This document shows, in pieces, positions 1 through 18,606 of a DNA stretch of 64,000 nt. Origin of the DNA: Candidatus Zixiibacteriota bacterium (GTDB lineage Bacteria > RBG-13-66-14 > B26-G2 > WVWN01); contig JAUWLW010000001.1 in NCBI GenBank assembly GCA_030613505.1, forward strand, positions 68,225-132,224. The letters are read 5' to 3'. A program made the position numbers and the translations under genes. A model generated the notes under the pieces. The model had not been told where the DNA came from, did not search any database, and saw only the letters and a list, made by a program, of their open reading frames with translations. Position 1 is the first letter of the stretch. The number at the start of each line of letters is the position of its first letter.

Positions 1-629
1 GAAGAGGCCCTGGCCCTCCACCCCCAGCGAGATGAAGTTCCCGGCGACCATGCCGCCCACGCACGCGACGATTATTAATATGAGGCCGAGGGCGAAGGTC
101 CACGGCCTACGCCCGGGCGCAACGTCCAGAACGTCCGGGTAGAGGAGGCCGAGCGCCCGCACGCGCTTGTCGAGCGCCTTCAGGAGCAGCGGCCCGAGGA
201 TCGCCGGATAAATAATGTTGTTGGCGACGATGACGTTGCCCAACGCCGCGAAGGGCGCGAGGCCGAGGAGGTCGCCGCCCCAGCCGATGAAGAGGCCGCA
301 GGCCGCCGCGGCCAGGACCACCGTCGCCTCGACGAGCACCAGGCCCCGCCACGACGCGAGGTACTCCTTATCCGAGGCGCGGATGAGCCGATACGGGATG
401 TACGCCAATAGGAAGTTGCCGCCCAGGCCGAAGATGCTGCCCCACCCCAGCGTGCCGAAGAAGTCGCCCAGCAGGTTGCCCAGCGCCGCGCCGACGGCCC
501 CCGCCGGCCCGAACAAGAGCCCCGCGACGAGCGGTATGGCCGCGGCGGGCCGCATCTCCGTCAGGCCCGGGATGAGGACCAGCGGCTTGAAGGGGATGAG
601 CAGCGCGGCGTAGAGGGCCGCGGTGGCCG
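1..629 (-). pseudogene. 5'-truncated second copy of ECF-S-like membrane protein gene
   Basis: This stretch is a near-identical direct copy of 2526..3151, with one 3-bp length difference around 90-112 and scattered substitutions. It covers the membrane-protein gene from about codon 18 onward. Identity stops abruptly at 629 (partner position 3151). Upstream of that point the sequence is unrelated propeller coding sequence, so this copy lacks its start codon and first transmembrane residues. The 3' end lies outside the window. The frame stays open over the visible part, so the copy is either recent or still constrained. A MAG assembly chimera is an alternative explanation. Confidence 0.75.
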
Positions 630-1387
630 CGGGAGGCGGGGGCGACGGCCTCGTGACCAAACCACTCGATGTAATAGATACAATTCGTCGCGGCGTCAAC
701 GACCATCACCCGTGCAAACGGCGGCGGCCCACCGGTTCGAATGCTTGCTTCAACCGCTACCGGCGAAGTTAAGTTCGCTGAGCCCCACTTTGAAAAATAT
801 ACCTTGTGGGTCGACGGGTCGCCCAAAACCGCTTTACCTGGGCCACTAGCTTGGATTCCGGTTAAACGGTTTCCGGGCCCTTGGAAAGAACTTACCACGG
901 AACCGGTCGTAGTAATTTCCAAGGCCAGGTTCTTTTCGGGGATAGCGACGTATTTATCGTAAATCCCCCCACTCAAGTCCGCCGGGTGGTCCCAGGGGCA
1001 CCGGAAAGAGGCGATAACGGAACCCGTAGTCGTTAACCGGTAGATGTAGCTCGTATTGAAGTTGGAAACGACGAGGTCACCGCCCCCTTCCCGCCACTTC
1101 GTTAAACCCCAAGCGCCGGTCGGGACGGCCAAGGAGATATATTCCGAGGGCTTAGTCACGCTATATACGCGGGGGGGCGTGCCGTCGCAGAGTACCGAAA
1201 GGCCGTAAGGCGCGTTGAAAACCACGCCGCGGGCGTTCGACGCCGGCGCGGGATAAGAGCTTATGATTGACCACCCGGTTGCCGCCGCCTCCCCGACAAA
1301 AAACGCGGCCCCGGCGAGCGCCAGAAGGCCGCAAAATATGGCTAATTTTTTCCCGGGCCGACGTTTTTTTCGAAAGCGCCGTTTAAT
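630..1387 (-). pseudogene. Secreted beta-propeller-like protein, 3'-truncated, no ATG/GTG/TTG start
   Basis: Reading upstream in frame from the first GTG (1225) gives a basic N-terminus (KRRFRKKRRPGKK) and a hydrophobic signal segment ending near AGAAFFVGEA. The next residues are WSIISSYPAPASNARGV, typical of a mature exported protein. Two blade-like repeats share the pattern ITTTGSVxxSF. The signal peptide would begin at an ATT codon at 1387, where a lysine-rich 'MKRRF' start is expected, and a stop lies just upstream. No Shine-Dalgarno site is seen. The frame leaves the propeller at about 632, where it runs out of frame into the membrane-protein copy. The gene is therefore truncated and probably dead. 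Function is unknown. Confidence 0.6.
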
Positions 1388-1414
1388 GCGTTAGTTATAG
1401 GATGGTGAATACGG

Positions 1415-2071
1415 TCAGTTAGGTTTAGGAATGACCCGTTTCTTTTCCGCAATTCTCCCGGCCGCGTAGACTAATTCTTCAAACGGCGGTTCCCCGCAGT
1501 GTTCTTCTCTTAATTTAGGTATTAAAGCTTTAAGGTCTTCGAATACCTTGAGTACTTTTTTTGGCGTTGGAAACTTAAAACCTTCTGTTAACGGTTTGAA
1601 CCACTCCACGACTATTTTTATTATCGCCGCCGGCTTATTACTATGTATTCTCGGGTCATGCCCCGCTAAGTCCGATAACGTTTTACTAAGTCTATGTAGT
1701 TTGCTTTCTAACAAAAACCATTGATATTTACCGCGTTTAGTATATTCCATTGCATAAACAATCCCTAATTCGAAGGCCATATTCATACGGGGTAGTTTTT
1801 CTTTTCCCCCGGGCATCCTAGATAAGTCGTTAATCGAATAACCGCAACCGATAATTAGATCCATTATCTTTTCCATTCGCCCAATGCCTGTTTCCCGGAC
1901 TTCCAACGCCGATCTGGGTTGCTTACCTATACACACAATAGAACATACTAAAGCTAAGAGTAAGTCGCGATATTCGTCATCGAAAGGTACGTTAAGAAAT
2001 ACCTGTGTCGGTTCCGGTCGCGGTTTTTTCGGCGTTTTTCTTAATGGCTTCGGTTGCGTTTTTCGTCCCAT
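1415..2071 (-). CDS. TIR-like / nucleoside-2-deoxyribosyltransferase-fold protein
   Basis: 218 aa, preceded by a good ribosome-binding site (GGGAGG). Motifs recall the nucleotide-binding TIR/deoxyribosyltransferase superfamily: VFLNVPFDDEY (residues 24-34), then SINDLSRM (79-86), then PRMNMAFELGIVYAM (94-108), in which Glu101 sits where these families carry the catalytic glutamate. The N-terminus is very basic (K/R/P-rich to residue 22). The gene is clearly more AT-rich than its neighbours. It follows a 59-aa gene and lies between two copies of an ECF-S-like gene, which points to horizontal acquisition. A role in NAD or nucleotide cleavage during defence is an inference from the fold; no substrate can be read from the sequence. 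Confidence 0.65.
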   Translation of the reverse strand: MGRKTQPKPLRKTPKKPRPEPTQVFLNVPFDDEYRDLLLALVCSIVCIGKQPRSALEVRETGIGRMEKIMDLIIGCGYSINDLSRMPGGKEKLPRMNMAFELGIVYAMEYTKRGKYQWFLLESKLHRLSKTLSDLAGHDPRIHSNKPAAIIKIVVEWFKPLTEGFKFPTPKKVLKVFEDLKALIPKLREEHCGEPPFEELVYAAGRIAEKKRVIPKPN

Positions 2072-2132
2072 AGACCTCCCGTTAATGCAATAATTCCTTG
2101 CGTTTTAAATGCCCCAAAGCCTTTTTGGTAAC

Positions 2133-2312
2133 TCACGCTTTTTTCGCGCGCTTTAAGCCTTTTGCGGTTTCGTCACGCAAATCGCCCTGGTTCTCCGAAA
2201 TCATCCGGTCTATACGTTCTTTATCATTTTTCGCTATTTTTAATAGTCGTAATAGCTCATCGATGTCTATAATACGGTCGGTTGTTAAGCCGGCCCTTTT
2301 CTTGTTTGCCAT
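2133..2312 (-). CDS. Small charged helical protein, 59 aa
   Basis: The ORF starts at ATG 2312, five to six bases after an AAGGA site, and encodes MANKKRAGLTTDRIIDIDEL followed by a strongly charged, helix-forming sequence ending KRAKKA. It is too short for a default gene caller. It lies 61 bp upstream of the TIR-like gene on the same strand and shares its AT-rich composition, so the two probably form a transcript. Size, charge and position fit an antitoxin, inhibitor or regulator of the downstream protein, but no family is recognised. Confidence 0.55.
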   Translation of the reverse strand: MANKKRAGLTTDRIIDIDELLRLLKIAKNDKERIDRMISENQGDLRDETAKGLKRAKKA

Positions 2313-2381
2313 ATCACGATTCCTTTATATGGTTCGCGTCATTAAGCCGACGTTTCTATCTTTAACCGTGCTCGTTCTAAC

Positions 2382-2399
2382 ACAAGTCTTGCTACTTGT
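2382..2399. promoter_or_regulatory. Inverted repeat, possible operator
   Basis: ACAAGT and ACTTGT are exact inverted halves separated by six bases. The repeat lies about 70 bp upstream of the 59-aa gene, in AT-rich DNA between it and the end of the ECF-S-like gene. It could bind a regulator of the small-protein/TIR-like pair. No run of T follows, so it does not look like a terminator. Confidence 0.3.
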
Positions 2400-2429
2400 C
2401 TATGATATTAGACTGCTAAACGTTAAGAT

Positions 2430-3203
2430 TTATATCAATAAAACCCCAATAACGAGCAATACAATAAACGGCGCGACGCCGGCGCCCACCGTCCCGGGGT
2501 GGAAGTCCGGGCCGAAGCCGGAGGCGAAGAGGCCCTGGCCCTCCACGCCCAGCGAGATGAAGTTCCCGGCGACCATGCCGCCCACGCACGCGATTACGAT
2601 TAATATCAGGCCGAGGGCGAAGGTGCGGGGGCGCCGCGGCGTAACGTCCAGCACGTCCGGGTAGAGGAGGCCGAGCGCCCGCACGCGCTTGTCGAGCGCC
2701 TTCAGGAGCAGCGGCCCGAGTATCGCCGGATAGATTATGTCGTTGGCGACGATGACGTTGCCCAGCGCCGCGAAGGGCGCGATGCCCAGGAGGTCGCCGC
2801 CCCAGCCGATGAAGAGGCCGCAGGCCGCCGCGGCCAGGACCACCGTCGCCTCGACGAGCACCAGGCCCCGCCACGACGCGAGGTACTCCTTCTCGGAGGC
2901 GCGAATGAGCCGGTAGGGGATATACGCCAAAAGGAAGTTGCCGCCCAGGCCGAAGATGCTGCCCCACCCCAGCGTGCCGAAGAAGTCGCCCAGCAGGTTG
3001 CCCAGTGCCGCGCCCACGGCGCCCGCCGGCCCGAACAAGAGCCCCGCGACGAGCGGTATGGCCGCGGCGGGCCGCATCTCCGTCAGGCCCGGGATGAGGA
3101 CCAGCGGCTTGAAGGGGATGAGCAGCGCGGCGTAGAGGGCCGCGGTGGCCGAGGCCAGCACGACCATCCGCGTGTTCCCCCACATATTGAGGAGCTCGCG
3201 CAC
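2430..3203 (-). CDS. ECF-type transporter S component-like integral membrane protein
   Basis: 257 aa, starting at GTG 3203, 4 bp after the upstream gene's stop and behind a GAGGT site. It has about six hydrophobic segments. The region FGPAGAVGAALGNLLGDFFG, with the following glycine-rich segments, resembles QueT/BioY-type substrate-binding membrane subunits of energy-coupling-factor vitamin transporters. Those proteins work with a shared T subunit and ATPases, none of which is seen here. The substrate cannot be assigned. A nearly identical, 5'-truncated copy lies at 1..629. Confidence 0.65.
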   Translation of the reverse strand: MRELLNMWGNTRMVVLASATAALYAALLIPFKPLVLIPGLTEMRPAAAIPLVAGLLFGPAGAVGAALGNLLGDFFGTLGWGSIFGLGGNFLLAYIPYRLIRASEKEYLASWRGLVLVEATVVLAAAACGLFIGWGGDLLGIAPFAALGNVIVANDIIYPAILGPLLLKALDKRVRALGLLYPDVLDVTPRRPRTFALGLILIVIACVGGMVAGNFISLGVEGQGLFASGFGPDFHPGTVGAGVAPFIVLLVIGVLLI

Positions 3204-3207
3204 GTCG

Positions 3208-3894
3208 CTACCTCGTCAGCTCGTAGATGCGGATTAATACGGAGGTATCCTTCAGGTCGTTGAGCGGCTCGATCTCCACGAAATATTTCCCGGCGAAGGG
3301 TACGTCGTCGAAGATCACGGCCTTGCCGTCGTCGCCCAGTTCCTCGAGCGCGTATCGGACGTCCGCCGGCGGCGTCACTACCCGGGCGTACGCGTCGTAC
3401 GGGTTTACGACGTTGGCCTCCAGGCAGTCACCCCCGCACGATATGACGTACGTCGTCCCCTGCGCGGGCTTGATATCGTACCTGCCCTTCTCCCCCGCCT
3501 TTATCGTGATCTGCGCGGACTCGAGGAGAGTGAGTTTGGGCGGCGGCTCGGTGGATTCGGGCCTCCCGCCCGCCACCGCGCGCTCGAGCGCGGCCGTCGT
3601 CTCCGCGCCGACGACGCCCGTTACCGGCAGGCCCCAGTCCCGCTGGAACGCCTTGACCGCGGCCCCCGTCGCCGGCCCGAACGCGCTCTCCAGCTTGCCC
3701 GACTTGAGAAGGTAGTCGTCATAGCCCAGCTTCGAGAGGTCGGTCTGCAGCATCGTGACGTAGTCGGCGGCGAAGTCGCTGTCGCGCGTGCCGAACTCGA
3801 GCGTGTGGCCGCCGTAGCGGCCGCCCTGGCCTAAAACGACGGCCGGTAACGCCAACGCGACGAGAAGTATCCCCGTTAAATATTTGCCAGCCAT
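3208..3894 (-). CDS. Exported peptidoglycan-binding-domain protein
   Basis: 228 aa with a signal peptide (KYLTGILLVALALPAVVLG). Residues about 35-110 form a PG_binding_1 domain: a paired-helix segment with LQTDLSKLGYD, then AFGPATGAAVKAFQRDWGLP and VGAETTAALE. The C-terminal part (about 120-228) is beta-rich and resembles bacterial pre-peptidase C-terminal-like sandwiches (YFVEIEPLND). No catalytic motif is visible, so it probably anchors to the wall or acts as a periplasmic adaptor. The downstream ECF-S-like gene starts 4 bp after its stop. Confidence 0.7.
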   Translation of the reverse strand: MAGKYLTGILLVALALPAVVLGQGGRYGGHTLEFGTRDSDFAADYVTMLQTDLSKLGYDDYLLKSGKLESAFGPATGAAVKAFQRDWGLPVTGVVGAETTAALERAVAGGRPESTEPPPKLTLLESAQITIKAGEKGRYDIKPAQGTTYVISCGGDCLEANVVNPYDAYARVVTPPADVRYALEELGDDGKAVIFDDVPFAGKYFVEIEPLNDLKDTSVLIRIYELTR

Positions 3895-10029: not shown

Positions 10030-10836
10030 TTACTTCTTGTCTCGTTCGCGTTTATCGCGGGCGATGGCCGCGTACGCGTCGTGCTGGTGGATGGATTCGT
10101 AGTTGGTGCACTCTACGCGGTACGAGCGAACGCGCTTGTCGCGCTCGAGCTTTTCGGCGACGTTGCGGACGACGTCCTCGACGAAGCGCGGCCGCCCGTA
10201 CGCCAGCTCCGTTACGGCCTTCTCGTCCTCGCGCTTGAGCAGCGCGAACAGCGGCGCCGACGCGGCCTCCTCCGCCCACGCCACCACTTCCTCGATCCAG
10301 ACGATGTGCCGCGACTCGAGCTCGACGTAGACGTCGCCGCGTTGGCTGTGGGCGCCGGCGTCCGATATGTCTTTGGAACAGGGACAGAGGTTGGCCACCG
10401 GCACCGTCACGCCCAGCGAGAAACTGTACCGGTCGACGAAGTCGCCGATGAAGCGCGCGCGGACCTCCAGGAAAGACTTCTCCGCGGAGGCCGGCGCGGC
10501 CTTGTATATGAAATATGGAAAGCCGATGACGAGGTGGGCCCGGGCGGCGTCGAAGCGCCCTACCATCTCGCGCAGGATGTACGCCATCGTCCGGTAGTTG
10601 ACGTTGTCGCGGTAGCCGTAGAGGACCTCGACGAAGCGGCTCATATGGGTGCCGCGGAACCGGGCCGGGAGGTCGACGGACATGTCGACGGTGGCGATGG
10701 TGTCCTGGTGTTCGCGTTCGCGGTCCAGGACGCGCACCGGCAGCCGCACGCCCTTGACGCCGACGCGGTCTATCGGTATCTCCGCGGCGGGGCGCTCGTT
10801 CGCGACGTCGCTCTGCGGTTTGCCTTTAGCGGCCAT
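10030..10836 (-). CDS. folE2: GTP cyclohydrolase FolE2 (type IB)
   Basis: 268 aa, full length for the family. It converts GTP to 7,8-dihydroneopterin triphosphate, the first step towards folate or queuosine. Diagnostic motifs are RGTHMSRFVEVL (residues about 62-73) and NLCPCSKDISDAGAHSQRGD, which holds the metal-ligating cysteine and the conserved His. VAELDRDKRVRSY-like C-terminal helices follow. FolE2 is the metal-flexible alternative to FolE. FolC is encoded further along (25.5 kb), so folate synthesis is represented twice here. Its start overlaps the end of the upstream nucleotidyltransferase gene by 11 bp. Confidence 0.9.
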   Translation of the reverse strand: MAAKGKPQSDVANERPAAEIPIDRVGVKGVRLPVRVLDREREHQDTIATVDMSVDLPARFRGTHMSRFVEVLYGYRDNVNYRTMAYILREMVGRFDAARAHLVIGFPYFIYKAAPASAEKSFLEVRARFIGDFVDRYSFSLGVTVPVANLCPCSKDISDAGAHSQRGDVYVELESRHIVWIEEVVAWAEEAASAPLFALLKREDEKAVTELAYGRPRFVEDVVRNVAEKLERDKRVRSYRVECTNYESIHQHDAYAAIARDKRERDKK

Positions 10837-11404
10837 TATCTATAGACCTATCCTGCGTTTTAATAACGGCGAGCAAGTCCGACACCGACAACCGCTCGGC
10901 CCATTTCCGCAAGTAACTTTCGTCCAACGTCGTCCCCTGTACTTCGTATACGCCGCGGGCGTCGCGCACGTGCCTCTCGCCGTCGCCGGTAACGCGCGCC
11001 CACCGCAGCTTCGAGAGGATCGCGTCCTCGGCCGAGGGGAACCATACGTCGACGCCGCCGTAAAGGACCTTTCGCCGTCGGTCAAAGAACGAACGCTCGA
11101 ACGGTTCGGCTTTGAGAGGATGGAAATCCACTTTCTTCGCTATGTCGGTATCGATCAGGTTACAAATTAAACCCTTACTTAAGGATTCGTTTACATCTTG
11201 CGCGTCGACGTAATAGCGCGGCGGCTCGAAAGCGCGCGCTAAAACCTCGCCCAATCGGGGGTCGGCGGCCACGACTACGTCCGCGTCCTGCGTATAGCGC
11301 GGCTCGCCGTACACGCTGGTCACGACGGACCCCGTTACGACGTAATCGATTCCCGCGTCGTTCAGAACAGCGGCGACTTGCGCAAGGAGTTTTTCTTGAA
11401 GCAT
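10826..11404 (-). CDS. Nucleotidyltransferase-fold protein (MNT/AbiEii-like)
   Basis: 192 aa. A minimal nucleotidyltransferase core is visible: YVVTGSVVTSVYGEPRYTQD holds the G-S motif and TQDADVVV supplies the D-x-D metal ligands (about residues 39-43). KKVDFHP offers the third acidic residue. The downstream region IDTDIAKKVDFH followed by FPSAEDAILSKLRWA is typical of the AbiEii/DUF6036-type proteins often found as toxins. The start lies inside the upstream 89-aa gene (43-bp overlap), the tight coupling seen in toxin-antitoxin pairs. Toxin activity is inferred. Confidence 0.7.
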   Translation of the reverse strand: MLQEKLLAQVAAVLNDAGIDYVVTGSVVTSVYGEPRYTQDADVVVAADPRLGEVLARAFEPPRYYVDAQDVNESLSKGLICNLIDTDIAKKVDFHPLKAEPFERSFFDRRRKVLYGGVDVWFPSAEDAILSKLRWARVTGDGERHVRDARGVYEVQGTTLDESYLRKWAERLSVSDLLAVIKTQDRSIDNGR

Positions 11405-11632: not shown

Positions 11633-14600
11633 TTACCCTATCCTTACCCTTTCCCAAAGGGCGGCTACGATCCGCGCGCGTAGCCTTTGGTCTATGATGC
11701 CGCGAGTATAATCGTCTATTACGGCCGCGATACGTTCTTTTAACTTAATAAAATTAGGTAAAATACTTTCGAGGTAGTACAAATCCTCCGGCACGAGCGC
11801 GGCCTCCGCGCCGGTCTCGGCCCACGTGGCAAGGTAACGGGCTTCGGCCTCGGACCCGCATTCTATGCGGCCTTTAACCATATCTTTGCCGACGACGACG
11901 AACCAACCGTATAGGTCTTTATCTATGGAAACAGCCTCCGCCGGTTTCCACCCGTGCCCCGTGAGGTGGTCGCGGCCGCTAAGCTTATCGCGCACGAACG
12001 AAGCCAACGTATCTCCCCCCAACGCCGCAAGGACGTTCTTGGCGAGTTGCTCGGTGTCAATGCCGCCGGGTTTCTTTTTCTTAAGTTTAACGCTGGCCGA
12101 TTTATTTATTCGGGTGTTTACTAAATCTATTATAGCCCGGTAAACTTCTATTTGTTCCGCTTCTGATAAATTTAAGACCTCTCCCATAATAAAAGTATCT
12201 AATTCTCTAAGGTCTCTTTTTATACTTTTTAACGTAACATCGTTAACGTTTTTAGCGCCCAGCTCTTCAAATATCGAAACTATAGGCCTTGCCCCTATCT
12301 TTTCGACCAATTTTTCGCAACGTCGTTTATTACGTACTCTATTCGGGTTTAGCACGGTTAATTTCTTAGCCAGTTTCGCATTAAGTTCTACAACCGTATA
12401 AGAGCCTGTTAATTCGTACCCCGAAGTTTCGTAAAAAAACCTTCCCAGGGAAGAGTTTAAATAACATACCAAAGGAGCTTCGTATAAAGGGTTAATGAAA
12501 TTAATCCCATGGAAATTCTGGGAAGCGTAATAACCCCCTTCATTCAAATATACTATATATTTCTCGCCTATTCTTTTCGGGATTAATACGCGGTATATCT
12601 CGGCTCTTTTATTTTTATACCAAAAACTCCCGCGAGGTTCCCCTTTTTCTTTTTTATTAAAGCCCTTTAATTCGCCCGCTTTTATGTAACCCCGCAAATT
12701 AGGGCTTTTCATCGCTTTCTTTTCTTCTTCGATAAACAAGACTACCGGTAAACCGCTCAAATCTTTAAGAACGATTGAATCTACCCCTTTATGCGTTGTT
12801 AATATCCTATTGGGGGTTAATTTACCGCTGTCATCCTTATGTTTCCAATACGCCCTTTCGATACCAGCCTTTTTAATATCTTCGGGATTTTGAATAAAAA
12901 AATCATCTATCCCGGTACGTATCCCGCTCTTTACTTCGCCAATAGCTGGCGACAGCGGCACAAAGAAATCCGAGCATTTGCTTAATATCTTAAAATATAC
13001 CGCAGGAGCCCTTAAGTACTTACCCCACTTCGCGCCCGTATATACGCCCCTTTCCTCGTTATATCCCTCCCGCCATAGTTCTCTTTGCTTAATAGGGTTT
13101 ACCCGGAGTTCCTCGTTCTCGTATGGTTCGTCGTGACCGAGGACCGTTTCCACTATCGCCGTTACGGCCCGGCGCCTCGCGATTTGGCCTTCCCACGCGT
13201 CGGCGGCCGGCGGGATCAACGCGCTTAGCGGCATTTTAAGGTAGACGAACCGGGTTGCGTTGTCGTCACGCATCTCCTCGACGGAGCATTTCTCCAATAC
13301 TACGAGGCACGTGTTAACGTCGGCACCCTCGAACCACCGCTCGACCTTAGATTCAACGATAGCGAGTATTTTGTAGTTTTTAAGGAAGAACTCCTGCAAG
13401 CCCGCCCCGTAGTCTTTGTCGTCCAACCATGCGTTAAAAACTACGAACCCAAAACGCCCTTTTTCTTTTAAGAATTTATAACCATGTATGAAAAAATAAG
13501 CGTAAATACCCGCCTTTTCAGATATATTAGCTATTTTGATACTGTCTTCGTATAAAGCCGATTTTAAAACCGCCTTTTTATATTCCGGGTCGCCGGTTAT
13601 GCGGGCCATTTCCTCCTGGCGTGTGTAGGGCGGGTTGCCGACTACGGCATCCACTAGGCCGGGCTTGGGAATGTGGACCGGGCCGGCTTCTAATGCCGCC
13701 GCCGCGGCTTTATCTCCCGCCGCCGGCTTTTCCTTGAAGAAGTCGGTATGGAAAACCCGCGGGTAATTCTCGGTTACGCCCAGATTGCGAATGGCTAAAT
13801 TGATCGTGGAAAGATGTGCGGGGAACTTGGCGATATCGAAACCGTACAACGTATCTAAAATACGCTCGTGCTCCTCGCGCAACATAGGGTTCATGAGCGT
13901 TTTCTGCCGATAAGCTCGTACGAGGAACGTTCCGGCGCCGCATCCGGGGTCGAGTACGTCGTCGTTTTCGTCGCGAAGGCAAAAGCCAAGGATCAAATCG
14001 ACGACGTTAGCGGGCGTAAAGTACTGGCCGAGTTCATGCCGGCGTTCGGGGGGAATTAGGTTTTCAAATATCCTCCCTAAAATTTCAAAGTCGACTTTCG
14101 AGAAGTCGTATCCCCGTAGGTAATCGACAAGATCGACTATTTCGCCGATTACCGTGGTATCGTCGGGGAACGCGGCTTCGTCTATGAAGTCCGTCGTATA
14201 AATCGTTTCGTAGTCGATCCCCAATACCTCGTCGAAGTAATTCTGGAGGTTTTTACGTAGCGTTTCTCCGCGTACAATTCCTTTACTTAGCTCTAGTTGG
14301 CTGATCCGCTGTTTGGTTTGAAGAACGTTATAAAATAATATTTTATTTACTAGGAGGTGCCCCGCCTGACGCCCCGCTTTCGCGAAGTCGTCGTCGCTGG
14401 CGGTGAAGTTCCAACTTTGGTCCGCAAACCAATACCGTAACCGCTCTTCGAATTTTTTATCTTCGCCGAAACGCTTTTGGATTATCGTCTTATAGAACGC
14501 GCTAAGGCGGTCGATTTTTTCGTCGAGCCGCCAGACGAGAACGTCGTCTATAGGGTGTTTCGGTTCGGCGCGTTTTCCCGCGGCGACCTCGTACAACGCC

Positions 14601-15088
14601 GTTAGAAAACGGCCTAGCGCGTTTTTTATAACGATCTGGTTAACCGGCTCTCTAATTTCCTCGAGGTCGTTTATCGCCGAGAGGTCGAATTGGTCGATAA
14701 CCTGTTCTTCCTCTCGCATGTCCGCGGCGGTACGTTCGGTGCTATACCAAATCAGTTTCCGGAAGTTGCACGTCGCATAGTATGGGGCCCGCCGCTTTCC
14801 AGCTTTTTCGTACGCGGGTTTTTTAAGTTCGTCGTAGTTGTATACGTCGAACTCCGGCCTTTTACATTCGATTAACATTAATACTGTTTCACTGCGCGGC
14901 TTTTCGTAGATCAGTATGTCCGGTTGTTTTACGTCGTCCGCCGTCGTTTCTACGAAAGCCTCGCCTAAGTCGAGCTGCTTCTCGCTCGTTACTTCGTTAA
15001 TCCACTCGCATAACTTAGCCGCGGCCGAACGCTCAGTTAGACGCGTTAACCCCGTAGGCATCCGTTTCCTTTTTCGCGCGGGGGACAT
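11633..15088 (-). CDS. Single-polypeptide restriction-modification enzyme (type IIG / Eco57I-like)
   Basis: 1151 aa in three parts. An N-terminal PD-(D/E)xK nuclease-like segment has Asp57 (QPDILIY) and E-C-K at 74-76 (VLMLIECKRPEFD). A central N6-adenine methylase has LGQYFTPANVVDLIL (353-367), motif I DPGCGAGTF (380-388) and motif IV NPPY (485-488). A C-terminal region of about 450 residues should hold the target-recognition domain. Type IIG enzymes cut and methylate from one chain. The gene is markedly AT-rich, most of all at 12.1-13.0 kb (C-terminal half), which suggests recent transfer. A RadC N-domain gene lies immediately upstream and a toxin-like pair downstream. Confidence 0.85.
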   Translation of the reverse strand: MSPARKRKRMPTGLTRLTERSAAAKLCEWINEVTSEKQLDLGEAFVETTADDVKQPDILIYEKPRSETVLMLIECKRPEFDVYNYDELKKPAYEKAGKRRAPYYATCNFRKLIWYSTERTAADMREEEQVIDQFDLSAINDLEEIREPVNQIVIKNALGRFLTALYEVAAGKRAEPKHPIDDVLVWRLDEKIDRLSAFYKTIIQKRFGEDKKFEERLRYWFADQSWNFTASDDDFAKAGRQAGHLLVNKILFYNVLQTKQRISQLELSKGIVRGETLRKNLQNYFDEVLGIDYETIYTTDFIDEAAFPDDTTVIGEIVDLVDYLRGYDFSKVDFEILGRIFENLIPPERRHELGQYFTPANVVDLILGFCLRDENDDVLDPGCGAGTFLVRAYRQKTLMNPMLREEHERILDTLYGFDIAKFPAHLSTINLAIRNLGVTENYPRVFHTDFFKEKPAAGDKAAAAALEAGPVHIPKPGLVDAVVGNPPYTRQEEMARITGDPEYKKAVLKSALYEDSIKIANISEKAGIYAYFFIHGYKFLKEKGRFGFVVFNAWLDDKDYGAGLQEFFLKNYKILAIVESKVERWFEGADVNTCLVVLEKCSVEEMRDDNATRFVYLKMPLSALIPPAADAWEGQIARRRAVTAIVETVLGHDEPYENEELRVNPIKQRELWREGYNEERGVYTGAKWGKYLRAPAVYFKILSKCSDFFVPLSPAIGEVKSGIRTGIDDFFIQNPEDIKKAGIERAYWKHKDDSGKLTPNRILTTHKGVDSIVLKDLSGLPVVLFIEEEKKAMKSPNLRGYIKAGELKGFNKKEKGEPRGSFWYKNKRAEIYRVLIPKRIGEKYIVYLNEGGYYASQNFHGINFINPLYEAPLVCYLNSSLGRFFYETSGYELTGSYTVVELNAKLAKKLTVLNPNRVRNKRRCEKLVEKIGARPIVSIFEELGAKNVNDVTLKSIKRDLRELDTFIMGEVLNLSEAEQIEVYRAIIDLVNTRINKSASVKLKKKKPGGIDTEQLAKNVLAALGGDTLASFVRDKLSGRDHLTGHGWKPAEAVSIDKDLYGWFVVVGKDMVKGRIECGSEAEARYLATWAETGAEAALVPEDLYYLESILPNFIKLKERIAAVIDDYTRGIIDQRLRARIVAALWERVRIG

Positions 15089-15091
15089 AAT

Positions 15092-15403
15092 TTATTCGAC
15101 AGCTCTTAAAACGCGTCGGGCGATCTCAAGCGTGGCCGCGATGCGGTGTATCTTTACGTCACCCAAACCTTTGATAGTTTCGAATTCTTCGAATCGGCGG
15201 CCTGCCATACCGAGGAACGAACCGAATTTGGCTAGTATCTCCTCGGCTATTTTTATAGCGGGTCTCTCCGCTGTTCCCGTCCCGATAATTATCGCCAGGA
15301 GCTCGGCATCCGAGAGCTCTTCGGCGCCCAGCTCGCGTAACTTCCCGCCGGGATGGGAGTAACCACCGATTTCTTCTTCGTTTAAGTTCAATTCTTCTTG
15401 CAT
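15092..15403 (-). CDS. RadC N-terminal (UPF0758) domain-only protein
   Basis: 103 aa from ATG 15403, with AAGGGTGA upstream. The sequence GAEELSDAELLAIIIGTGT and FETIKGLGDVKIHRIAATLE are the helix-hairpin-helix hallmarks of RadC/UPF0758. RadC proteins are normally about 220 aa and end in a JAB/MPN metalloprotease-like domain, which is absent here. The ORF ends cleanly 3 bp before the restriction-modification gene, so this looks like a stable short form coupled to that gene rather than a frameshift. It may help the enzyme bind DNA; that is inference. Confidence 0.75.
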   Translation of the reverse strand: MQEELNLNEEEIGGYSHPGGKLRELGAEELSDAELLAIIIGTGTAERPAIKIAEEILAKFGSFLGMAGRRFEEFETIKGLGDVKIHRIAATLEIARRVLRAVE

Positions 15404-15426
15404 AAAATCACCCTTAAGCAGCCTTA

Positions 15427-16965
15427 TTACTCCCACTCCACCGTGGCGGGCGGCTTGGAGGTTACGTCGTAGACGACGCGGTTGACGCCGGCCACCTCGT
15501 TCGTGATGCGGCTCGAGATCTTGGCCATAAGTTTGTGGCACATGCGGTACCAGTCCGCGGTCATGAAGTCCGCCGTCGTCACGCAGCGCAGCGCGCACAC
15601 GTGCTCGTACGTCCGCTCGTCGCCCATCACGCCCACCGACTTCACCGACAACAGCACCGCCAGCGCCTGGGCGATCTCGTCGTAGACGCCGGCCTCGCTT
15701 ATCTCCTCCCGCAATACGGCGTCCGCCCGCCGGAGCATGGCGAGCTTCTCGGGGGTCACCTCGCCTATGCACCTTACCGCGAGGCCCGGCCCCGGGAACG
15801 GGTGGCGCCCCACGATCTTCTCGGGCAGGCCGAGCTCGCGGCCCACCGCGCGGACCTCGTCCTTGAAGAGCTCCGCCAGCGGCTCCAGCAGCTCGAAGGG
15901 CAGCTCCTCCGGCAGGCCGCCGACGTTGTGGTGCGTCTTGATGGTGTCCGACGGCCCCTTCACGGAGCGCGACTCGATGCGGTCCGGGTAGAGCGTTCCC
16001 TGCGCCAGGAATTTTACCCGGCCGCCGACCTTCTCCGCCTCGGCGACGAATACGTCGATGAAGGTGTGGCCTATGACGCGGCGCTTCTCCTCCGGGTCCG
16101 CCACGCCCTCGAGTTTATTTAAAAACAGCTCGCCGGCGCGGGCGACGGCGAGCGGTATCCCGAGCTCGCCCTGGAAGACGCGCTCGATCTCGTCGACCTC
16201 GCCCTCGCGCATCAGGCCGTTGTCGACGAAGATGGCGTGGACGCGGTCGCCGACGGCGCGGTGCAAGAGCGACACCAGCACGCTCGAGTCCACCCCGCCC
16301 GAGAGCCCAAGCACGACGTGCTCGTCGCCGACGCGCTCCTCTATTTCGGCCGCCTTCTCGGTTATGAAAGACGCCGGCGTCCAGGTGGACTCGAGGCCGG
16401 CGACGCCGAAGAGGAAGTTGGCCAGGATGCTCGAGCCGTGCTCGGTATGGGTAACCTCGGGGTGAAACTGAAGGCCGTAGATGCGCCGCGCGTCGTCCCC
16501 CACCGCGGCGTAGGGCGAATTGTCGGAGGTGGCGAGGGCGCGGAAGGCCGGCGGCAGTTTCTCGAGGCGGTCGCCGTGGCTCATCCAGACGGCGAAACTC
16601 TCCGGGACGCCGTCGAAGAGGGCGTGCGGCGACGGGACGTGCAATGTGGCCGGGCCGTACTCGCGCGCCGCGGCCCGCGCCACCTCGCCCCCCAGCGTGG
16701 CGGCCAGGTATTGCAGGCCGTAGCAAATGCCGAGGACCGGGACGCCCAGCTCGAGCACCCGCGCGTCGGCGCGGGGCGCCCCCTCGGCGTATATCGAGGC
16801 CGGCCCGCCGGATAAGATGAGGGCCCCGACGCCCCGCTCCGCCAGCGCCTCCGGGTCGACGTCGTAGGGCTCGATCGTGGCGTAGACGCGCTGCTCGCGC
16901 ACCTTGCGCGCGATGAGCTGCGTGTACTGGCTGCCTAAGTCGAGGACTACTACTTGAGGTCGCAC
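15427..16965 (-). CDS. guaA: GMP synthase (glutamine-hydrolysing)
   Basis: 512 aa, full length. It converts XMP, glutamine and ATP to GMP. The class I amidotransferase domain has LSGGPASIY, the nucleophile elbow GICYGLQYLA (Cys near residue 80) and HPEVTHTEHG. The ATP pyrophosphatase domain begins with GLSGGVDSSVLVSLLHRAVG. The C-terminal dimerisation domain ends TSKPPATVEWE, the canonical end of GuaA. It lies 23 bp upstream of the RadC-like gene on the same strand, with no clear terminator between, so the defence genes may be read from its transcript. Confidence 0.96.
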   Translation of the reverse strand: MRPQVVVLDLGSQYTQLIARKVREQRVYATIEPYDVDPEALAERGVGALILSGGPASIYAEGAPRADARVLELGVPVLGICYGLQYLAATLGGEVARAAAREYGPATLHVPSPHALFDGVPESFAVWMSHGDRLEKLPPAFRALATSDNSPYAAVGDDARRIYGLQFHPEVTHTEHGSSILANFLFGVAGLESTWTPASFITEKAAEIEERVGDEHVVLGLSGGVDSSVLVSLLHRAVGDRVHAIFVDNGLMREGEVDEIERVFQGELGIPLAVARAGELFLNKLEGVADPEEKRRVIGHTFIDVFVAEAEKVGGRVKFLAQGTLYPDRIESRSVKGPSDTIKTHHNVGGLPEELPFELLEPLAELFKDEVRAVGRELGLPEKIVGRHPFPGPGLAVRCIGEVTPEKLAMLRRADAVLREEISEAGVYDEIAQALAVLLSVKSVGVMGDERTYEHVCALRCVTTADFMTADWYRMCHKLMAKISSRITNEVAGVNRVVYDVTSKPPATVEWE

Positions 16966-18606
16966 TTACACTCCCGCGACGTCCCGGCCCTTGGGGAACT
17001 CGACGTCGTAGTTGAAGGTTATCTTTTTCTTCTCGCCCTCTTTGAGGGTGAGGTGCCACTCCAGCAGGCCGTCGTCGTCCTTTTCCGCGGGCTTGGGCTT
17101 GGCCTCAGTCATCTTGACCTTGATGTCCTTGTTCAGCGGCACCGGGAGGCGCTGCTTGACGACGACGTCGGCGGCGCCGCCGGTGTGGTTCTCGAGCTCG
17201 GTCTCGGCCTTGAACGTTATCTTCCGGTTGGAGCCGGTTAGGCCCGACGACTCGTCCGTAATCCGCTGGCAGTCGTGCTCCACTTTAAGGCGGTCGTCGG
17301 CGCCGAGGTAATACTCGAGCTCCGCGCCCGGGACGGTGAGCTCGAGCTCGGCGCGACCCACGTACTCGTCGCCGCGGAAGACGTTCGCTACGCCGGCCAG
17401 GAACGTGAGCTCGGTCCCGTTGGTCACCTTCGCACGTAAATACGCGACGTCGCCGTGCTCGGGTACGACTACGTGGGCGAGCTCGCCGCGGAAGCGGTGG
17501 TTGCTGACGGCGACGACGTGCGGCTCGCCGTCGGCGGGTACGGAGGGCAGGCCGGGCACGACGTACGTCACCGCGGGCCCCCGCGTCTCGACCGCGGCCT
17601 CGGCCTCGCCGGCTTCGTAATAGGCCGCCGGCTCGAGGTCAACCTCGTCCTCCAACAGCTCTTGTGGTTCCTCTTCGGCGGCAGCTTCGGCGCGCATAAC
17701 GGCCTTGGCCTGGGCGGGCGCGGGCGCCGCGACGTAGGGCTGGTAGAAGTCGACGTACTTGGGTTCGAGCTCGGGGGGCGCCGCGCCGGCCTGAGGCCGC
17801 GCCGTCGACAATTTGAGGTTAACGTCGACCCAGCCCTCGCCCGTGCTCTGGTAAACGGCGGCGCGGTATTGGACCTCGGTTTCGTTTAGAGCTTCGTTGA
17901 AGCGGAGGTCGTACATCGGCTCCCAGTGGGCGCTGGGCATTACGTAACTCAGCGCCAGGTCGAACTCGCCGCCCACGGAGCACTCGTACGCTACGGCGGC
18001 GGTTTTCTCCTCGCGCGGCCGCGGCGCCTTGTGCTTCTCGTACTCGAACCTGAGCTTCTCGAGCTCGCGCTCCTTATCGCGCAGCGCCTTGTCGAGTTTC
18101 AGCATTTGCGCGTTGGACTTGCCGAGGTCGTCGTAGAAAAACGAGACCACGCCCTCGGCTTCGGCCAGGTCTATGCGCCGGCGGGCGATGGTCTTCGCCA
18201 GGTCGCCGGTGGCGGCCTCGCTCAGAGCCTGTACGCCCCGCCGCCGCTCGGCGGCCACTTCCCGCTTATCGGCCAGCGCGCGGCGCTCGTCTTCGGCCCT
18301 CTCCAGCGCCAGGCGGAGCTTCTCGGCCTGGGCGGCCGAGGAGCGGCCGGGGAATTCGCGGCCTATCTTCACGCCCATTATCCGCACCTTGGCCGGGCCG
18401 GAGCCGGCGACGCGCAGCGAGTACTCGTCCAGCGCCGCGGGCAAACCCCGCACGACTATCGCACCTTCGCCGACGTCGAGCGCCAGGTGGGCGGTTCGCG
18501 TAATCATGGCGCAGTCGGCGTACGCGGTGACGGCCGATATCGCGGAGTCGGCGCGGTGGGTGCGCGGCCCTTCCCGCCCCGCCTTCTTGCGTCTTTTCGT
18601 CGCCAT
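16966..18606 (-). CDS. DUF4140/DUF4139 (mucoidy-inhibitor MuiA-like) family protein
   Basis: 546 aa. An N-terminal DUF4140-like segment (VTAYADCAMITRTAHLALD, GLPAALDEYSLRVAG) is followed by a coiled-coil region (about 90-190). The C-terminal DUF4139 beta-rich domain has ALSYVMPSAHWEPMYDLRFN and ends in LLEWHLTLKEGEKKKITFNY. This domain layout is typical of MuiA-like proteins of unknown biochemical function. There is no obvious signal peptide; the basic N-terminus KRRKKAGREGPRTHR suggests a cytoplasmic location. Its stop abuts guaA directly. Confidence 0.75.
   Translation of the reverse strand: MATKRRKKAGREGPRTHRADSAISAVTAYADCAMITRTAHLALDVGEGAIVVRGLPAALDEYSLRVAGSGPAKVRIMGVKIGREFPGRSSAAQAEKLRLALERAEDERRALADKREVAAERRRGVQALSEAATGDLAKTIARRRIDLAEAEGVVSFFYDDLGKSNAQMLKLDKALRDKERELEKLRFEYEKHKAPRPREEKTAAVAYECSVGGEFDLALSYVMPSAHWEPMYDLRFNEALNETEVQYRAAVYQSTGEGWVDVNLKLSTARPQAGAAPPELEPKYVDFYQPYVAAPAPAQAKAVMRAEAAAEEEPQELLEDEVDLEPAAYYEAGEAEAAVETRGPAVTYVVPGLPSVPADGEPHVVAVSNHRFRGELAHVVVPEHGDVAYLRAKVTNGTELTFLAGVANVFRGDEYVGRAELELTVPGAELEYYLGADDRLKVEHDCQRITDESSGLTGSNRKITFKAETELENHTGGAADVVVKQRLPVPLNKDIKVKMTEAKPKPAEKDDDGLLEWHLTLKEGEKKKITFNYDVEFPKGRDVAGV

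What the first reader, a model, noticed from the sequence alone, without database searches (positions are those of the whole stretch)
1..3151. AT-rich, defence-like cargo bounded by direct copies of a membrane-protein gene
A >=629-bp direct repeat of the ECF-S-like gene encloses a TIR-like gene, a 59-aa gene and a propeller gene that is cut off at position 630. One repeat copy lacks its 5' end. This looks like an insertion that used the host gene as a recombination site, carrying a candidate defence pair.
Basis: partly seen in the sequence, partly recalled or inferred. Interest (0 to 1): 0.72.

Follow-up and report, generated by a model that had tools for sequence, protein, structure and literature searches.

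The report
Imported TIR gene beside duplicated transporter
A small AT-rich gene pair, one gene a likely NAD-cutting immune-type enzyme, sits just past a vitamin-precursor transporter gene whose partial second copy looks like a scar of one-sided DNA import, not the end of a mobile element.

Summary
The repeat is real. A full QueT-type ECF-S gene (2430-3203, -) and a 5'-truncated copy (window -95..629) are 93% identical and flank 1.8 kb. Only 1361-2429 (42% GC against 64%) is foreign-looking. The propeller remnant X (630-1360) belongs to the native gene cluster next to QueT in related genomes. X lacks its start codon and its last ~9 codons. The 629/630 junction is non-homologous. No integrase, tRNA or convincing terminal repeat was found. 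The two copies are nearly identical at the 5' end but differ as much as separate species at the 3' end. The best fit is one-sided homologous import of a related allele, with an illegitimate joint at the other end. A relative (G003) has an unrelated AT-rich orphan gene at the same QueT 3' spacer with no duplication, so the spacer, not the repeat, is the cargo site. The 218-aa protein has a confidently predicted TIR/N-glycosidase fold with an invariant Glu. It belongs to a widespread, patchy family that Pfam, NCBIfam and PADLOC models do not recognise, usually preceded by a small basic gene. A defensive NADase role is plausible but untested.

The parts
1..629 (-). QueT copy A, 5'-truncated (codons ~17-257; its 3' end continues 95 bases left of the window, C7:68130)
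   Evidence: 93% to copy B; open frame kept; first ~16 codons replaced by X sequence
624..634 (.). Non-homologous junction between the end of propeller X and codon ~17 of QueT copy A (at most ~1-2 bp overlap)
   Evidence: X read against its relatives and QueT of copy B/G001
630..1360 (-). Propeller gene remnant X: start codon region and last ~9 codons (LGRVKALFR tail) missing
   Evidence: Nearest relatives lie in the QueT-side propeller clusters of G003 (63%) and G002 (54%); 59% GC
1361..2429 (.). AT-rich (42% GC) two-gene module sitting in the QueT-propeller spacer
   Evidence: GC profile; unique in the genome; spacer empty (~50 bp) at copy A and in G002
1415..2071 (-). TIR-like protein, 218 aa, invariant Glu101
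   Evidence: AlphaFold2 pLDDT 91.5, pTM 0.87; best matches SPARTA TIR Z 14.5, DNPH1 Z 14.2, AbTir Z 14.2
2133..2312 (-). Small basic 59-aa ORF upstream of the TIR-like gene, in the position of the family's usual small partner
   Evidence: Position typical for the family (53/76 loci against 145/781 controls); sequence homology to other partners not shown
2430..3203 (-). QueT copy B, complete, with the ancestral upstream neighbour
   Evidence: PF06177; collinear with G001 and G003
3208..3894 (-). Peptidoglycan-binding-domain gene, ancestral upstream neighbour of QueT
   Evidence: PF01471 E 3.4e-16; same order in G001, G003

Best explanation
The locus is a recombination scar plus a small acquired module. 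In the ancestor the order was PG-binding gene - QueT - propeller cluster. A related genome had an AT-rich two-gene module (59-aa gene + TIR-like gene) between QueT and propeller X. DNA from such a genome recombined homologously within QueT on one side and was joined without homology on the other (end of X to QueT codon ~17). This left a complete chimeric QueT (copy B), the imported 3' part with the module and X, and a beheaded resident QueT (copy A) with its old downstream neighbours. The TIR-like protein most likely hydrolyses NAD+ (or another N-glycoside) when triggered by phage infection, held in check by, or working with, the small basic partner. Shown: anatomy, mosaic identity, junction, empty and alternatively filled sites, predicted fold. 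Inferred: donor, order of events, enzyme activity, defence role, partner's role.
For: (1) Divergence of the two copies rises from 5' to 3': dS by 60-codon block 0.06, 0.14, 0.24, 0.45, while dS of A to G001 is 0.29-0.45 throughout; in the last 49 bp A and B differ by 28.6%, A and species G002 by 14.3%. (2) Differences are clustered, with a 128-bp identical run at the 5' end (random placement on variable sites: 95th percentile 98), as in mosaic transformation tracts (PMC13344027). (3) Changes on the truncated copy are mostly synonymous (5 of 18 nonsynonymous; about 0.6-0.7 expected if unconstrained, p 0.0001-0.006), so they mostly predate truncation or the copy is still constrained. (4) The flanks are ancestral on both sides: copy B's right side is collinear with G001/G003, copy A's left side with G003. 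(5) The junction has almost no homology, as expected when homologous recombination at one end is coupled to illegitimate joining at the other (PMC3240628, PMC5361080). (6) The genome encodes ComEC. (7) TIR fold with invariant Glu101.
Against: No donor genome with QueT-59aa-TIR-X was found. The identity change is patchy and graded, not one clean step. An older duplication with later gene conversion could give a similar pattern. The gradient rests on one gene pair and three same-genus genomes, one with an N gap in QueT and one with a contig end there. No enzymatic or phage data exist.
Confidence: 0.5

Rival explanations
1. Local tandem duplication of the QueT...X segment within the genome, followed by insertion of the AT-rich module (with deletion of the genes between QueT and X) and partial gene conversion between the QueT copies.
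For: X belongs to the same cluster that lies downstream of QueT in G002/G003, so the order X|QueT is what a tandem duplication gives; the region is deletion-prone: the gene left of copy A looks like a signal peptide fused to the tail of a C25-type peptidase that is complete in G001.
Against: No second X or second module is found left of copy A; the 3' ends of the copies are as diverged as different species, so the duplication would have to be old and converted only at one end; needs more steps.
Confidence: 0.28
2. Mobile element or integrase-type island that targets the QueT gene.
For: AT-rich cargo bounded by direct copies of a gene; related TIR-like genes occur on plasmids, once beside a TniB/TniQ transposon.
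Against: No recombinase or transposase among the ORFs of the 1.8 kb; no tRNA; no convincing inverted or direct terminal repeats at the module's ends; the flanking repeat is 725 bp and diverged; G003 has different cargo at the same spot without the repeat.
Confidence: 0.05
3. Assembly artefact joining two strain haplotypes.
For: The genome is a fragmented draft (100 contigs); G001 breaks at QueT and G002 has an N gap there.
Against: The junction at 629/630 shares almost no sequence, which a k-mer assembler cannot bridge without reads; the copies differ by 7%.
Confidence: 0.1
4. The TIR-like protein is a DNPH1-like nucleoside monophosphate hydrolase or deoxyribosyltransferase with a housekeeping role and not a defence effector (a rival for function only; compatible with any history of the locus).
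For: DNPH1 scores nearly as high as TIR domains (Z 14.2 against 14.5).
Against: Very patchy distribution, absent from all other sampled members of its phylum; AT-rich foreign context; frequent small partner and sometimes a second TIR/SEFIR-like upstream gene.
Confidence: 0.25

Closest known systems
Homology-facilitated illegitimate recombination (e.g. proposed for V. cholerae T6SS effector-immunity arrays, PMC5361080; shown in E. coli conjugation, PMC3240628)
   Same: Homologous anchor in a conserved gene on one side, non-homologous joint on the other, displaced remnant of the old allele left behind
   Different: Anchor is a QueT transporter gene and the passenger a TIR-like module; no donor or live transfer observed
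TIR-domain NADase immune effectors (SPARTA TIR-APAZ, CBASS TIR, AbTir)
   Same: Predicted fold (Z 14.5 to the SPARTA TIR domain, 14.2 to AbTir), invariant Glu in the helix after the third strand
   Different: Stand-alone ~200-aa protein with its own C-terminal helices, ~10-15% identity, no Argonaute, CD-NTase or SAVED partner next to it; small basic gene upstream instead
Swarozyc / DUF4062 TIR-like NADases (PMC13174449)
   Same: Divergent TIR-like/NDT-like family with patchy phylogeny and a conserved Glu
   Different: No DUF4062 Pfam match; lacks the long auxiliary domain; different N-terminal motif (VFLNVPFD)
QueT (PF06177) ECF-S transporters
   Same: Copy B matches above the curated cut-off
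   Different: Copy A lacks the N-terminal ~16 residues, probably non-functional

Membership tests
TIR-domain NADase | TIR alpha/beta fold | tested here: met
   pLDDT 91.5; Z 14.5 to SPARTA TIR, 14.2 to AbTir; N-glycosidase DNPH1 scores alike, so the wider superfamily is well supported, the branch less so
TIR-domain NADase | Conserved catalytic Glu | tested here: inconclusive
   Glu101 invariant in 66 aligned members, in the helix after the third strand, where TIR NADases carry theirs; no residue-level overlay with a TIR active site was possible
TIR-domain NADase | NAD+ cleavage | not testable with these tools
   needs an enzyme assay
Known anti-phage system (PADLOC-DB) | Match to a described defence gene model | tested here: not met
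   No match for the window protein; only 1-3 of 66 relatives match individual TIR effector models weakly (best 7e-4)
Swarozyc / DUF4062 | DUF4062 domain | tested here: not met
   Not among Pfam matches
Homology-facilitated illegitimate recombination product | Homologous join on one side | tested here: met
   copies A and B identical over the 5'-most 128 coding bp compared, mosaic beyond
Homology-facilitated illegitimate recombination product | Non-homologous joint on the other side | tested here: met
   629/630 junction with at most 1-2 bp overlap
Homology-facilitated illegitimate recombination product | Donor allele with the same order | tested here: inconclusive
   only three same-genus genomes available; none carries the module
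Integrative element / genomic island | Recombinase, terminal repeats or tRNA target | tested here: not met
QueT ECF-S component | PF06177 above cut-off | tested here: met
   55.6 bits against cut-off 33.7 for copy B

The most novel reading that the evidence does not exclude
The module belongs to an undescribed, widespread two-gene immune or toxin-antitoxin system: a stand-alone TIR-like NADase with a small basic helix-turn-helix-like partner encoded just upstream, spread by homologous capture at conserved gene borders.
Probability: 0.3. Interest if true: 0.6.

Novelty: new variant of a known kind. Interest (0 to 1): 0.36.

Why it matters
It shows how immune-type genes may enter a genome without a mobile element, by one-sided recombination in a conserved neighbour, leaving a legible scar with a built-in empty site. 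It also points to a TIR-like family present in hundreds of sampled genomes (at least 547 matching stretches, search truncated) that Pfam, NCBIfam and PADLOC models do not recognise, usually paired with a small upstream gene, which is ready for a simple phage or toxicity test.

Tried and rejected
G002's apparently truncated QueT, first taken as a parallel case, is an N scaffold gap. A plain local tandem duplication was favoured until the left flank of copy A proved to keep the ancestral order. The 15-bp imperfect direct repeat at 1357/2346 was rejected as a target-site duplication (87% alike, one of 12 such chance-level families). Homology of the 59-aa ORF to other partners: a weak pairwise match to one (E 0.003 in 67 sequences), but it ranks 106th of 2857 scored sequences (its own shuffles) against the partner profile while true partners rank first, so it is not claimed. 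Sequence search of solved structures gave only chance matches. No relative in 50,697 phage records (queried with a relative from L058); 10 in IMG/VR contigs, not examined further. The first genome-contig scan with the single protein found nothing; the alignment found at least 547.

Full report
What is there. The window is G000:C7:68225-132224. Reading the minus strand, the order is: peptidoglycan-binding gene (3894-3208), complete QueT-type ECF-S gene B (3203-2430), 59-aa ORF (2312-2133), TIR-like gene (2071-1415), propeller remnant X (1360-630), 5'-truncated QueT copy A (629 to C7:68130), then a small signal-peptide fusion gene Y, propellers P2 and P3 and a gene that looks like a B12-binding radical-SAM enzyme (the last by eye). 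Copies A and B share 675 of 727 aligned positions. Pfam names the gene QueT, a queuosine-precursor transporter component.

Which part is foreign. GC is 0.69 in QueT, 0.59 in X, 0.56-0.58 in the left propellers, 0.64 over the rest of the window, but 0.42 in 1361-2429. The module occurs once in the genome and the TIR-like gene in none of the other sampled genomes of its genus, order, class or phylum; four of 145 sampled genomes carry a distant relative. X is different: it has 18 further matches in this genome, and its best relatives in G003 and G002 lie in the propeller cluster beside QueT. So X is part of the local landscape, not cargo.

Both ends of X are broken. At its 5' end homology to other family members stops within the signal peptide and no ATG, GTG or TTG start remains; at its 3' end the family's closing motif (ASLGRVKALFR) is cut after AS, and the sequence passes directly into codon ~17 of QueT copy A. 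The two parent sequences share at most one or two bases at that point, so the joint was not made by homologous recombination.

Related genomes. G003 (same genus) has a single QueT with the same upstream neighbours; downstream it keeps P2 and P3 in the same order as the left side of copy A, plus a remnant of Y's tail. Between that remnant and QueT it carries an unrelated AT-rich (~36% GC) 374-aa orphan gene with no family match and no relative in 145 genomes. G002 has propellers directly after QueT with a spacer of about 50 bp; its QueT is interrupted by an N gap. G001's contig ends inside the 3' end of QueT. The spacer 3' of QueT is therefore empty at copy A and in G002, filled with the TIR module at copy B and with another AT-rich gene in G003. 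The cargo site is this spacer, and filling it does not require duplicating QueT. Two filled cases are few; the hotspot reading is suggestive only.

How the two copies arose. Synonymous divergence between A and B climbs from 0.06 to 0.45 along the gene while divergence of A to G001 stays at 0.29-0.45. In the last 49 bp A is closer to species G002 (14%) than to B (29%). Differences are clumped, with identical runs of 128 and 104 bp. A copy that lost its start and first ~16 codons should drift freely, yet only 5 of its 18 private changes are nonsynonymous; B has 7 of 23. The simplest account is that A and B are two lineages' alleles brought together recently: homologous recombination inside QueT on one side (mosaic, as seen in natural transformation, PMC13344027) and an illegitimate joint on the other, as described for homology-facilitated illegitimate recombination (PMC3240628) and proposed for V. 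cholerae effector arrays (PMC5361080). The genome has a ComEC homologue. A local duplication with one-sided gene conversion remains possible and is scored as the main rival.

The TIR-like protein. A 66-member alignment has invariant F25, N27, P29, R65, D82, R95, N97, M98, E101, L102, G103, D134, D139 (window numbering). The model is confident (pLDDT 91.5, pTM 0.87). Foldseek's best hits are SPARTA TIR-APAZ chains (E 2e-4); VIA-align gives Z 14.5 for the SPARTA TIR domain, 14.2 for AbTir and 14.2 for DNPH1. By sequence only 6 of 66 members touch the CAP12/Pycsar TIR model of Pfam, best E 0.011, and a few touch PADLOC TIR effector models. At least 547 stretches in the GTDB species genomes encode relatives, in bacteria of many phyla, some on plasmids.

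The partner. In 53 of 76 family loci a 45-125-aa ORF ends within -65..+45 bases of the TIR-like start, against 145 of 781 control ORFs (p 8e-20). Over two dozen of these share a helix-turn-helix-like motif (TTPFPTxEExAxxLGVSxxR...); five tested by leaving each out were all recognised. Others have a DUF2188-like or a second TIR/SEFIR-like gene there (my reading, not tested against a family library). The window's 59-aa ORF holds the position but its homology is not demonstrated.

Function. By analogy with TIR NADases, the likely job is NAD+ depletion on a phage cue, with the small basic protein as inhibitor, sensor or adaptor. This is inference. About 9 kb away the window carries a Type IIG restriction-modification gene missing from the collinear stretch of G003, so another defence gene varies in the neighbourhood.

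Limits. No reads, no donor, three same-genus genomes, unnamed organism, no biochemistry.

Noticed in passing
window 11633-15088 (-): 1151-aa Type IIG restriction-modification enzyme (PADLOC E 1e-42; Pfam N6_Mtase, Eco57I) within a stretch (about 10.8-15.4 kb) absent from the collinear region of G003; AT-rich part 11.85-13.65 kb.
   Followed up: partly
window 10826-11404 (-): 192-aa nucleotidyltransferase-like protein (DUF6036) next to the Type IIG gene, in or at the edge of the same variable stretch.
   Followed up: partly
window 15092-15448 (-): 118-aa ORF with only the N-terminal RadC-type domain (UPF0758_N), apparently a fragment without the C-terminal part.
   Followed up: partly
L016 7340-8464 (-): AT-rich orphan 374-aa gene of G003 at the same QueT 3' spacer, no family match and no relative in 145 genomes.
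   Followed up: partly
L003 15929-17702 (-) and the L015, L016 clusters: Tandem secreted propeller genes ending in a shared C-terminal motif (SLGRVKALFR or SVGRIKALFR), many copies per genome; the motif might be a sorting or anchoring signal.
   Followed up: no
L003 ~17720-18083 (-): Gene Y looks like a signal peptide of a propeller fused to the tail of a C25-type peptidase that is complete in G001 (L168 5379-7793): a deletion scar.
   Followed up: partly
L059, L060, L078, L081, L098, L101, L118, L124, L125, upstream of the TIR-like gene: Some TIR-like relatives have a larger gene resembling a TIR/SEFIR domain protein directly upstream in place of the small partner.
   Followed up: no
L077, L093, L104, L112, L121, upstream of the TIR-like gene: Some relatives are paired with a small DUF2188-like protein.
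   Followed up: no
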